The notes beneath the pieces are model-generated. The model was not told where the DNA came from. It did no database searches and was given only the letters and a program-made list of their open reading frames with translations. A DNA stretch of 64,000 nucleotides from Streptomyces armeniacus. Lineage in GTDB: Bacteria > Actinomycetota > Actinomycetes > Streptomycetales > Streptomycetaceae. A program made the position numbers and the translations under genes. Shown here piece by piece: positions 24,398 to 28,825 of this stretch. Every line of letters begins with the position of its first letter. Position 1 is the stretch's first letter. The stretch is from positions 4,455,367 to 4,519,366 of the forward strand of contig NZ_CP031320.1 in the NCBI RefSeq assembly GCF_003355155.1, read 5' to 3'.

Positions 24398-25336
24398 ATG
24401 GCTGTGCGGGTGTTCGTGGCAGGCGGGACCGGGGTCGTGGGGCGGCGGCTGGTGCCGCGGCTCGTCAGCAGGGGGCACCACGTGACGGCCACGACGACGA
24501 GCGCCGCCAAGCTGGCCTCCCTGGAGCGGCTGGGCGCGGAGGCCGTCGTGATGGACGGGCTCGACCCGGCGTCGGTCGGCGAGGCGGTGGCCTGGGCGCG
24601 GCCGGACACGCTCGTGCACCAGATGACCGCGATCTCCGCGGCGCACGCAGGCAAGCCCGATCTGAAGCACTTCGACCGCTGGTTCGCCCGCACCATCCGG
24701 CTGCGTACGGAGGGTACGGATCATCTGCTGGCCGCCGCCCAGGCGACCGGCGTCAGCCATGTCGTCGCGCAGAGCTACGCCAACTGGAACGGCATCCGCA
24801 GAGACGGCTGGATCAAGACCGAGGAGGACCCGCTGGATCCGGAGAAGGGAACGGTCGCACACAAGGGGGCCGAGGCGATCCGCCACCTCGAGGAGGTGGT
24901 CGTCGGCGCCGGCGGCGCGGTCCTGCGCTACGGCGGGCTGTACGGACCGGGCGCCACCGACGACCAGGTGAAGCTCGTACGGAAGCGGCAGTTCCCGCTG
25001 GTGGGGCGCGGCACCGGGCACGCCTCGTGGGTGCACCTGGACGACGCGGCGAGCGCTACCGTACTGGCCGTGGAGCAGCGGGCCAGGGGCGTGTTCAACA
25101 TCGTGGACGACGAGCCGGCCCCCGCCGGCGAGTGGCTGCCGCATCTGGCGGCCTGTGCGGGCGCGAAGCCGCCGGTGCGGGTGCCCAAGTGGCTGGCCCG
25201 GCTGCTGGCCGGGGAGGTGGCGGTGACAATGATGACCGAGGGGCGCGGCTTCTCCAACGCCAAGGCCAAGCGCGAGCTCGGCTGGGAACCGCACTATCCG
25301 TCGTGGCGGCAGGGCTTCCGGGAGGCGCTGGGATGA
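24398..25336 (+). CDS. NAD-dependent epimerase/dehydratase-family protein (ECF41 partner)
   Basis: The 312-residue protein is an extended short-chain dehydrogenase-like enzyme. The NAD(P)-binding loop VAGGTGVVGRRL is at the N-terminus, followed by VVMDGLD and LLAAAQATGVSHVV. The usual catalytic Y-x-x-x-K is not obvious; a Lys is present in HKGAEAIRHLE, so it may be an atypical or regulatory member. C-terminal segments GVFNIVDDEPAPAGEW and KRELGWEPHYPSWRQGF are typical of the family. The ATG at 24398 follows GGGAAGG. Its stop overlaps the sigma gene as ATGA. Epimerases are one of the known partner classes of ECF41 sigma factors. Confidence 0.88.
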   Translation: MAVRVFVAGGTGVVGRRLVPRLVSRGHHVTATTTSAAKLASLERLGAEAVVMDGLDPASVGEAVAWARPDTLVHQMTAISAAHAGKPDLKHFDRWFARTIRLRTEGTDHLLAAAQATGVSHVVAQSYANWNGIRRDGWIKTEEDPLDPEKGTVAHKGAEAIRHLEEVVVGAGGAVLRYGGLYGPGATDDQVKLVRKRQFPLVGRGTGHASWVHLDDAASATVLAVEQRARGVFNIVDDEPAPAGEWLPHLAACAGAKPPVRVPKWLARLLAGEVAVTMMTEGRGFSNAKAKRELGWEPHYPSWRQGFREALG

Positions 25337-26265
25337 ACCGGACCGAGGAGTTCGAGGAGCTGCGGCCGCTGCTGTTCGCGATCGCGTACCGCATCCTCGG
25401 GAGCGTGAGCGAGGCCGAGGACGCCGTCCAGGAGAGCTGGCTGCGCTGGGCGGCCTCGCCGACCCAGCCGGCGTCCACCAAGGCGTTCCTCTCGGCGGTG
25501 GTCACCCGCGTCTCGATCGACGTACTGCGGTCGGCGCGCGTCCGTCGGGAGGAGTACGTGGGGCCGTGGTTCCCGGAGCCGCTGCTCACCGACACCGACC
25601 CGTACCAGGACCCGGAGCGCTCGGCGGAGCTGGCCGACTCGCTGTCGATGAGCGCGCTGCTCCTGCTGGAGCGGCTGACGCCGCTCGAACGCGCCGTGTT
25701 CGTGCTGCGGGAGGTGTTCGGGTTCGGCTTCCCGGACATCGCGTCGGCCGTGGGGCGTTCGGACGCGGCGTGCCGGCAGCTCGCAGTACGGGCGCGGCGC
25801 CACATGGACGAGGGCAGGCCCCGGTTCGAGGCCGACCGGCAGGAGCGCGAGAAGCTCGCCGAGCGGTTCTTCGACGCGTTCAGGGACGGCGACGTCGACG
25901 GGCTGCGCGAACTCCTCGCCGCCGACGTCCAGATGGTCGGCGACGGCGGCGGCAAGGCACCGCAGTGGGCCAACCCCATCAACGGCGCCGACAAGGTGGC
26001 GCGGGTGCTCGCCTCGTTCGTCCACCCGCTGCACCGGATCGGCGTGGTGGTGGAGCCGCACGAGGTGAACGGCCAGCCGGGCGCGATCTTCCGCGACGCG
26101 GCCGGGAAGGTCTTCAACGCCCTCGTGCTCGACGTGCTGGACGGCCAGATCCAGGCGATCCGTTCGGTGATCAACCCCGACAAGCTCGCGCACGTGGGCC
26201 CGGTGGTGGCGGATCCGTGGGCGCTCGCGCGGGCGGCACAGAAGGCACGCCGCGAGAACCCGTGA
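25333..26265 (+). CDS. ECF41-family RNA polymerase sigma factor (SigJ-like)
   Basis: The 310-residue protein has sigma region 2 (LLFAIAYRILGSVSEAEDAVQ, VVTRVSIDVLRSARVRREEY) and region 4 (LERLTPLERAVFVLREVFGF, AVGRSDAACRQLAVRARRH). A SnoaL-like C-terminal extension of about 120 residues follows, with the ECF41 hallmarks DGGGK and NPDKL. In this group no anti-sigma factor is needed; the extension itself controls activity. The start overlaps the epimerase stop (ATGA), so both are made together. The upstream TGTCACA/CGTC promoter suggests autoregulation. The gene ends 30 bases before the adapter-like stretch, so its downstream context cannot be trusted. Confidence 0.93.
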   Translation: MNRTEEFEELRPLLFAIAYRILGSVSEAEDAVQESWLRWAASPTQPASTKAFLSAVVTRVSIDVLRSARVRREEYVGPWFPEPLLTDTDPYQDPERSAELADSLSMSALLLLERLTPLERAVFVLREVFGFGFPDIASAVGRSDAACRQLAVRARRHMDEGRPRFEADRQEREKLAERFFDAFRDGDVDGLRELLAADVQMVGDGGGKAPQWANPINGADKVARVLASFVHPLHRIGVVVEPHEVNGQPGAIFRDAAGKVFNALVLDVLDGQIQAIRSVINPDKLAHVGPVVADPWALARAAQKARRENP

Positions 26266-26295
26266 CCCGTGAGGTGAGGGGGGTGGAGGGATGAG

Positions 26296-26422
26296 GTGTC
26301 CCCTAGACCCATCTGACGCGGCCGACGAAGGCTTAGGGGTGGACATAGAGATCATCCTCCGACGTGCCCCGAGTCCTTCGCTAAAGGCTTCGTCGGCAGC
26401 TGCAGACGTGTATAAGGGGCAG
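26296..26422. other. degraded Nextera sequencing-adapter sequence (assembly artefact)
   Basis: The left end (26296-26328) matches the reverse complement of the Nextera S5 adapter at 27 of 33 positions, including an exact ATCTGACGC and GCCGACGA. It is followed at 26329-26336 by AGGCTTAG, the exact reverse complement of index S508 (CTAAGCCT). The right end (26390-26422) matches the forward adapter at 28 of 33, with exact TCGTCGGCAGC and GTGTATAAG. Translated, the stretch gives the contaminant-type peptides SDAADE and SSAAADVYK. The base composition is unlike its surroundings. It is not biological, and contiguity across it is unproven. Confidence 0.9.
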
Positions 26423-26499
26423 GCGCAACGCTGTGGCCTCCGAGGAGACGCCACTCACGGGTCAGGCGGCCGGCGGCGAGGCGAGGAGTACGACGGGCG

Positions 26500-27414
26500 A
26501 TGGGCTGGACAGCACGGGACATCCCCGACCAGAGCGGCCGCACTGCGGTCGTCACGGGTGCCAACAGCGGGCTCGGCGAGGTGACCGCGCGGGAGCTGGC
26601 CCGGCGCGGCGCCCGGGTCGTCCTCGCGTGCCGCAGCGAGCGACGCGGCAAGGCGGCCGTCGAACGACTGCTGGCCGAGGTGCCGGAGGCGCGGGCGGAG
26701 TTCCGTCCGCTGGACCTGGCGGATCTGGGGAGCGTACGGGCCTTCGCGGCGGGGCTGCCGTACGACCGGCTCGACGTGCTCGTCAACAACGCCGGGCTGA
26801 TGGCCGTGCCGTACGCGCGGACCGCCGACGGCTTCGAGACGCAGTTCGGCGTGAACCACCTCGGGCACTTCGCGCTCACCGGCCTGCTGCTGGACCGGCT
26901 GCTGGCGTCGGAGTCGGCGCGGGTGGTGACCGTGTCGAGCATGATGCACGCGCTGGCCAACATCGACATCCGCGACCTCAACAGCGAGCACCGCTACCGC
27001 CGCTGGGAGGCGTACTGCCGCTCCAAGACGGCGAACCTCCTCTTCACCCGCGAACTGGCCCGGCGCGCCGACGGACACGCGCTCACCGCCGCCGCCGCGC
27101 ACCCCGGCTACTCCGCGACGGAACTCCAGACCAAGGGCCCGCGCCTGGCCGGCCGGCGGGCCGGCGAACGCGCCATGCGGCTCGCGAACACCGTTGTCGC
27201 CTCGCCGCCGGACCTGGGCGCGGCGCCCAGCCTGTACGCGGCGACCGCGCCCGGTGTCGTACCGGACTCGTTCACCGGCCCGCGCGTGCTGCTCGTACGC
27301 GGTGCCCCCGGCCCGTCCTGGCGCGCCCCGTGGACGCGGAACGACGTGGCGGCGGAGCTGCTGTGGACGGCGTCGGAGCGGCTCACCGGCGTGCGGTACG
27401 GGGCGCTGGGATGA
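26500..27414 (+). CDS. short-chain dehydrogenase/reductase (protochlorophyllide-reductase-like subgroup)
   Basis: The 304-residue oxidoreductase has the NAD(P)-binding TGANSGLG, the structural NNAG in LDVLVNNAGLM, the catalytic Ser in VVTVSSMMH and Y-x-x-x-K in AYCRSKTAN. It belongs to the long SDR subgroup that acts on diverse carbonyl or alcohol substrates, here unidentified. The ATG at 26500 is preceded by GGCGAGGAG. Its stop overlaps the start of the response regulator as ATGA, an unusual coupling of an enzyme to a regulator. Its left neighbour in the true genome is uncertain because of the adapter-like sequence. Confidence 0.9.
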   Translation: MGWTARDIPDQSGRTAVVTGANSGLGEVTARELARRGARVVLACRSERRGKAAVERLLAEVPEARAEFRPLDLADLGSVRAFAAGLPYDRLDVLVNNAGLMAVPYARTADGFETQFGVNHLGHFALTGLLLDRLLASESARVVTVSSMMHALANIDIRDLNSEHRYRRWEAYCRSKTANLLFTRELARRADGHALTAAAAHPGYSATELQTKGPRLAGRRAGERAMRLANTVVASPPDLGAAPSLYAATAPGVVPDSFTGPRVLLVRGAPGPSWRAPWTRNDVAAELLWTASERLTGVRYGALG

Positions 27415-28427
27415 ACGGCGGCACCAGCGGCGGGACCGGCACCGGCACCGGCACCGGCACCGCGGGCGGACGCCGCCACGGTGCCGGTGTCGCCGGACCG
27501 CCCGTCCGCGTGCTCGTCGTGGACGACGACTTCATGGTGGCCCGGCTGCATCGCACGCTGGTCGAGCGGACCCCGGGCTTCACGGTCGTCGGGGAGGCAC
27601 GCAGCGGCGCCGAGGCGCTGGCGTCCGTGCGGGAACTCCGTCCGGAGCTGGTACTGCTGGACATGTACCTTCCGGACATTTCGGGCCTGGATGTGCTGCG
27701 TGAGCTGCGCGCCGCCGAGGAGCCCGGCACACACGGGGTCGACGTCCTGGTGGTGACGGCCGCACGGGACGTGGAGACCGTACGGGGCGCACTGCGCGGC
27801 GGCGCCGTGCACTACATCGTCAAGCCCTTCGAGGGCGGCACCCTGCGGGAACGGCTGCTGCAGTACGCGCACAGGCGGCAGGAGCTGGCGGACCTGGGCG
27901 CGGCGAACCAGGCGGACCTGGACCGGGTCTTCGGCGGCGGTGGCCGTGGCGGTGGCGGTGGCGGTGGCGGTGGCGGTGGCGGTGGCGGTGGCGGTGGCAA
28001 CGGAAGGGGTGTCCGTACGGGCGCGGGCCGCGCGGCCTCCGCGGGCGACCGCACGGAGGGCGCACCGGGCGGGGGCGGCACGTACGGCGGGGCGTACGGC
28101 GGTGGGCCGCGCGGCGGCGGACAGCGCGCCGCGACGGCGGCACCCAGCCTGCCCAAGGGGCTCACCGCGCAGACGGCGGCGCTCGTACGGCGCACCCTGG
28201 ACGGCTGCCCGGAAGGACTCTCGGCCTCCGAGTGCGCCGAACGCAGCGGCCTCTCCCGGGTCAGCGCCCGCCGCTACCTCGAGCACTTCGTCGCTACCGG
28301 ACGCGCCGAGGTGACACTCCGCTACGGCACGACGGGGCGCCCCGAGCGCCGTTATCACGCCACCCCACCGCCGGGGCACGCGGGGGGCGTTGCGGGGGCG
28401 GCCGACCCGGACCAAGGCAGACAGTGA
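27411..28427 (+). CDS. orphan CitB/DpiA-type response regulator with poly-Gly linker
   Basis: The 338-residue protein begins with a Gly/Thr repeat (residues 4-18), then a receiver domain: VRVLVVDDDFMVARLHR, phospho-acceptor Asp in LVLLDMYLPDISG, VVTAARD and IVKPFEGG. After the helix LLQYAHRRQELADLG comes a linker with about 17 consecutive Gly, from a GGTGGC hexamer repeat at about 27936-28000. The C-terminal helix-turn-helix (LSASECAERSGLSRVSARRY) and wing (YGTTGRPERRYH) are as in CitB/DcuR regulators of C4-dicarboxylate or citrate responses. No partner sensor kinase of CitA type is beside it. The start overlaps the SDR stop. Confidence 0.88.
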   Translation: MNGGTSGGTGTGTGTGTAGGRRHGAGVAGPPVRVLVVDDDFMVARLHRTLVERTPGFTVVGEARSGAEALASVRELRPELVLLDMYLPDISGLDVLRELRAAEEPGTHGVDVLVVTAARDVETVRGALRGGAVHYIVKPFEGGTLRERLLQYAHRRQELADLGAANQADLDRVFGGGGRGGGGGGGGGGGGGGGGGNGRGVRTGAGRAASAGDRTEGAPGGGGTYGGAYGGGPRGGGQRAATAAPSLPKGLTAQTAALVRRTLDGCPEGLSASECAERSGLSRVSARRYLEHFVATGRAEVTLRYGTTGRPERRYHATPPPGHAGGVAGAADPDQGRQ

Positions 28428-28825
28428 CGTACGGAAGCGGCTAACTCCCGACATTCACCGAGACTTGGCGAGCAACTTGAGCCGCATATCCCCTAAGAGC
28501 AATAAGTCCGTTTCAGTCGTTTCGGCGTGAATGAGACCGTCTGCGATGCGGCGTGACGTGACTAACAGAACCGCCCCCGGCAATACGTCACTCACCGCAC
28601 GGCAATGCCTTACGTCCGGTCAACTCTCCTGGCATGCGGCCCTTTTGGCGTTGCCACAGCAAAGATCGAAGCTAACGGAGAGGTAACGGCCCGCAGCACA
28701 CCGTGTATACGGGGCCCCTCGAATTCCCGGAGCCGGGCATGGGTAAACGAACGCTCCTTGCCGGGACGAATTGGTTGTGTTTTCGTTTCGAATCCCGCCG
28801 CAACTTACGCGGCGGGCCTCGCCGG
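28428..28825. other. long leader/promoter region upstream of the riboswitch
   Basis: No credible gene is seen in this 398-base stretch, which is less GC-rich than its surroundings. A hairpin is possible at 28553-28591 (GTGACGT / ACGTCAC with a 25-base loop), which could end the upstream transcript. The promoter of the riboswitch-controlled cell-wall gene must lie here or slightly downstream, but I cannot place it confidently. Confidence 0.45.

What the first reader, a model, noticed from the sequence alone, without database searches (positions are those of the whole stretch)
26296..26422. Sequencing-adapter sequence embedded in the chromosome
Both ends read as degraded Nextera transposase adapter in inverted orientation (27/33 and 28/33 identities to the remembered adapter), with an exact reverse complement of index S508 next to the left arm. 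Translations give the known contaminant-type peptides SDAADE and SSAAADVYK. The sequence either side may be a false join, so the apparent neighbourhood of the ECF41 operon and the SDR/response-regulator operon is unsafe.
Basis: partly seen in the sequence, partly recalled or inferred. Interest (0 to 1): 0.75.

Follow-up and report, generated by a model that had tools for sequence, protein, structure and literature searches.

The report
Adapter scar between concatenated contigs
The stretch is left-over Illumina Nextera adapter DNA trapped where two unrelated assembly pieces were placed end to end in a record that looks like a finished chromosome, so it is not biology and the genes on either side are very probably not real neighbours.

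The parts
25333..26265 (+).
   Evidence: Sigma70_r2, Sigma70_r4_2 and SnoaL_2. DNA homology of 25 relatives' ECF loci ends at 26204-26259.
26266..26295 (.). short tail of the left contig after the ECF stop codon
   Evidence: Sequence read; no match in the loci printed.
26296..26328 (-). Nextera read-1 transposase adapter, reverse complement, 27/33
26329..26336 (-). i5 index S508 (CTAAGCCT), exact, read as AGGCTTAG on the + strand
   Evidence: S508 is best or tied in 39 of 44 P5 arms of this genome. Index name recalled.
26337..26383. degraded outer P5 tails of both arms, where the two contigs abut; only 26337-26343 aligns to the P5 oligo
   Evidence: at other sites too the outer P5 part is more corrupted than the inner adapter.
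26384..26422 (+). right arm: end of the i5 index plus the forward Nextera read-1 adapter (26390-26422, 28/33)
   Evidence: 33 of 39 identical.
26428..27414 (+). start of the right-hand contig's genuine sequence; SDR gene at 26500-27414

Best explanation
It is an assembly artefact. Inserts of one Illumina Nextera-type library (i5 S508, i7 N705) were read through into the adapter. Clean adapter copies were probably trimmed away; copies with base-calling errors escaped and became contig ends. The contigs were then strung end to end, longest first, into one chromosome-length record. At 26296-26422 the left contig ends in reverse-complement adapter, the right contig begins with forward adapter, and their P5 tails meet. 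The two contigs (the right one about 55 kb) stand next to each other because of their size, not because they are neighbours on the chromosome. Shown: adapter identity, index, orientation, error type, shrinking spacing, synteny break. Inferred: escape from trimming, and concatenation by length.
Confidence: 0.97

Rival explanations
1. Adapter scar between contigs that really are neighbours: only the adapter bases are wrong, and the ECF-SDR order is real because this strain rearranged relative to its relatives.
For: Streptomyces chromosomes rearrange (established knowledge); most other predicted boundaries nearby carry no adapter.
Against: Synteny break coincides with the adapter to 6 bases; the spacing of sites along the whole record fits length-sorted contigs, and this block has about the length predicted for its place.
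Confidence: 0.03
2. Contigs were ordered by scaffolding and gap filling rather than by length, with errors.
For: N runs occur in 7 of 55 fetched site loci and one of 1,328 bases at 8,032,086.
Against: Spacing of sites falls from the left end to the right end (rho -0.88; 28 record lows), which scaffolding would not produce; N runs may come from scaffolds inside single pieces.
Confidence: 0.05
3. A natural inverted-repeat element (MITE-like, or a Tn5/IS50 relic) that happens to resemble the adapter.
For: About 127 bases with inverted ends and many diverged copies in one genome.
Against: The similarity runs on into a library index and the P5 and P7 flow-cell oligos, which to my knowledge are not Tn5 sequence; P5 and P7 types occur mixed; other genomes carry other indices, often at contig ends; errors follow sequencing dephasing.
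Confidence: 0.01
4. Chance resemblance in GC-rich intergenic DNA.
For: Imperfect identity of each arm.
Against: 28/33 and 27/33 against a simulated maximum of 22 and at most 21/33 in 143,700 other bases; 92 against 0 in the pattern control.
Confidence: 0.001

Closest known systems
Adapter contamination of microbial genome databases (Moeller et al. 2024, PMC11536531; abstract, Results and one Methods section read)
   Same: Illumina adapter left in published assemblies, concentrated at contig ends in a fixed orientation, harming assembly.
   Different: They searched exact 12-mers of the TruSeq adapter in MGnify assemblies and trimmed contig ends. Here it is the Nextera adapter, none of 92 mosaic-end copies is error-free, the copies lie inside one chromosome-length record, and their spacing exposes length-sorted concatenation.
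Nextera P5-i5-read 1 and P7-i7-read 2 adapters (sequences and index names recalled)
   Same: Both oligos recognised; indices S508 and N705.
   Different: Aligned parts are 77-95% identical in the 41 P5 matches.
Barcode and adapter remnants in public assemblies (Barbell paper, PMC13293122; passages read)
   Same: Library sequence surviving trimming into public records.
   Different: Nanopore barcodes.

Membership tests
Illumina Nextera adapter contamination | Match to the transposase adapter (14-base read-1 part plus 19-base mosaic end) far above chance | tested here: met
   27/33 and 28/33; simulated maximum 22.
Illumina Nextera adapter contamination | Flow-cell oligo and sample index next to the adapter, one index pair for the library | tested here: met
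   S508 best or tied in 39 of 44 P5 arms, N705 in 11 of 16 P7 arms (two P7 arms with N left out).
Illumina Nextera adapter contamination | Adapter lies at contig ends or joins, in the orientation insert-ME-index-P5 | tested here: met
   10 of 11 two-arm loci run reverse then forward; 21 of 30 loci in other genomes lie at contig ends.
Illumina Nextera adapter contamination | Absent from the same locus of relatives | tested here: met
Illumina Nextera adapter contamination | Raw reads end or lose pairing at the interval | not testable with these tools
   No reads held.
Length-sorted concatenation of contigs | Spacing between contig joins falls along the record | tested here: met
   94 clustered sites: rho -0.88, 0 of 2000 permutations as low; 28 record lows against at most 12 in 5000 shuffles.
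Length-sorted concatenation of contigs | Synteny blocks have the contig length predicted for their place | tested here: met
   Right block about 55 kb (4,481.8-4,537.2 kb), other block at most about 53 kb (4,755.1 to about 4,808 kb), between 63 and 49 kb; one relative only.
False contig join | Other adapter joins in this genome are non-collinear with a relative | tested here: inconclusive
MITE or Tn5/IS50 relic | Target-site duplication and a transposase source | not tested
   Not pursued once index and P5/P7 sequence were recognised.

The most novel reading that the evidence does not exclude
Some single-record Streptomyces genomes that look finished are contigs glued together longest first. 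Error-bearing Nextera copies, which survive trimming, mark the glue points, so a mismatch-tolerant adapter scan plus the trend of its spacing can unmask such pseudo-chromosomes. Gene order across every join in them is meaningless. Here the evidence is strong for this genome. For a second single-contig genome (G012) it is only suggestive: 29 of its 32 listed P5 sites lie beyond 6 Mb of 9.
Probability: 0.8. Interest if true: 0.45.

Novelty: not a real feature. Interest (0 to 1): 0.3.

Why it matters
The record looks like a finished 8.08-Mb chromosome scored 100% complete, yet it appears to be contigs in order of length. Operon calls, synteny, replication-arm comparisons and gene-cluster predictions across its joins are unsafe; the ECF-SDR association would be one false result. 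In a sample of 295 genomes of the genus (this one included), 32 have two or more mosaic-end near-matches, while no genome has two or more control matches and 20 have one. Completeness scores do not see this kind of error.

Tried and rejected
Natural inverted-repeat element: rejected on index, P5/P7 and error evidence. Inverted repeats of genomic sequence across the joins, suspected while reading the flanks: the longest exact inverted match at 51 sites was 7-11 bases, controls median 9, 95th percentile 11, highest 22, so nothing there. Scaffolding and gap filling was my first explanation of the joining; searches replaced it. Other adapter kinds in the window: TruSeq and PacBio stay within the simulated maximum; the Nanopore adapter reached 19/28 at 28579 on one strand against a simulated maximum of 17, not followed up. 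Adapter at the predicted boundary near 4,808,100: a suggestive trace only. Database search with the 97-aa artefact ORF: 12 candidates, none at E <= 0.001. Literature: four searches for adapter contamination (listings) and one for the artefact peptides (four papers listed, none about contamination by title). PMC11536531 was found through the reference list of PMC13293122. PMC6295017 was opened for one passage, a methods mention. I do not know which strain this is.

Full report
Observation. Sequence simulated from the window's base-to-base transitions reached at most 22 in 20 windows of 64 kb, and 143,700 bases of other sequence from the same genome reached 21. The exact reverse complement of index S508 follows the left arm at 26329-26336. 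Against the full P5-S508-Nextera oligo the left arm aligns over 26297-26343 (40 of 47) and the right over 26384-26422 (33 of 39). The 40 bases between are what remains of the two P5 tails by position only.

Genome-wide. The window lies at 4,455,367-4,519,366 of a single 8,083,249-base record. That record holds at least 41 matches to the P5-S508-Nextera oligo with E <= 1.4e-4, two of them this site; only 40 of 83 candidates were scored. It holds 14 to the P7-Nextera oligo with E <= 8.4e-4; 40 of 46 candidates were scored. The 19-base mosaic end occurs 92 times with up to 3 mismatches, while the same pattern read backwards occurs 0 times. None of the 92 is exact; 2 have one mismatch, 54 two and 36 three. 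I fetched 55 loci around such sites; 51 had an arm of 24 or more identities. Of 44 P5 arms, S508 is the best or tied-best of 18 recalled i5 indices in 39; of 16 P7 arms free of N, N705 is the best or tied-best of 12 recalled i7 indices in 11. One library with one index pair explains this; a natural repeat does not.

Anatomy of the joins. Where two arms lie in one locus (11 loci), 10 have the reverse-complement adapter first and the forward adapter second, 67 to 183 bases apart; one has forward then reverse, 440 bases apart, as a small contig with adapter at both ends would. In other genomes 21 of 30 loci read lie at a contig end; the 9 internal ones are the 4 of G012 (one contig) and the 5 of G121. 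N runs occur in 7 of the 55 loci, and one of 1,328 bases lies at 8,032,086.

Length-sorted record. I clustered the sites into 94 places. By megabase they number 1, 4, 3, 7, 4, 9, 13 and 35 for the first eight, and 18 lie in the last 0.08 Mb. The distance from one site to the next falls along the record: rho -0.88, 0 of 2000 permutations as low. The running minimum of the spacing falls in 28 steps from 606 kb to 475 bases; shuffles average 5.1 steps and reach 12 at most in 5000. Several longer spacings are near whole multiples of the running minimum (for example 2.93, 1.91, 2.99, 1.95), as when one or two joins in between carry no adapter; others are not. Dense sites at one end only would be odd for a linear chromosome with two like arms. 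The simplest reading is that contigs were strung together longest first. The window lies where pieces should be between about 63 kb (at 4.056 Mb) and 49 kb (at 4.958 Mb) long.

Why the copies are imperfect. In P5 arms identity is mostly 0.7-0.98 per position in the inner 33 bases (lowest 0.41) and 0.32-0.82 in the outer P5 part, on ungapped alignment. Of 401 substitutions in read direction, index included, 200 equal the preceding adapter base (expected 146, highest of 2000 shuffles 178) and 176 the following base (expected 136, highest 165); 261 go from A/T to G/C and 62 the other way. This is what dephasing in sequencing by synthesis would leave. The lack of clean copies fits removal of good matches by trimming (inference).

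Controls in other genomes. In 295 genomes of the genus, own included, with up to two mismatches, 42 have a mosaic-end match and 32 have two or more (hand count); the reversed control occurs in 20 genomes, once each. Eight high-count genomes were searched with the P5 oligo and 7 matched. The index is genome-specific where readable: GTAAGGAG in 5 of 5 loci of G077, TATCCTCT in 4 of 4 of G194 and 4 of 5 of G121, TTATGCGA in G114 (two full, two partial readings), CCTAGAGT in G099 and G120 (three full, one with a mismatch, four partial). The four loci of G012 gave inconsistent readings.

Known or new. Adapter contamination of genome databases is in print (PMC11536531; abstract, Results and one Methods section read). 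That study used exact TruSeq 12-mers and contig ends. Here the adapter is Nextera, no mosaic end is error-free, and the copies lie inside a chromosome-length record and betray its construction. It is not a biological feature.

Noticed in passing
L192 (genome 8,032,086-8,033,413): A 1,328-base run of N inside the single-record chromosome.
   Followed up: partly
genome 7.0-8.08 Mb: 53 of the 92 mosaic-end near-copies lie in the last 1.08 Mb (hand count); followed up as the spacing trend.
   Followed up: yes
G012 (unnamed Streptomyces, one contig): A second single-contig genome with 102 mosaic-end near-matches; 29 of its 32 listed P5 sites lie beyond 6 Mb of 9. It may be length-sorted too; its index could not be read consistently.
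   Followed up: partly
G121 (unnamed Streptomyces): 175 mosaic-end near-matches; the 5 loci read are about 1.5 kb or more from contig ends, so internal adapter joins occur there too.
   Followed up: no
window 28579 (- strand): 19/28 match to the recalled Nanopore adapter, slightly above the simulated maximum of 17; single and probably chance.
   Followed up: no
window 26291-26584: 97-aa spurious ORF that runs through the adapter into the right contig and could be annotated as a hypothetical protein.
   Followed up: yes
window 27940-28060: Long glycine-rich, GGC-repeat run in the response regulator reading frame.
   Followed up: no
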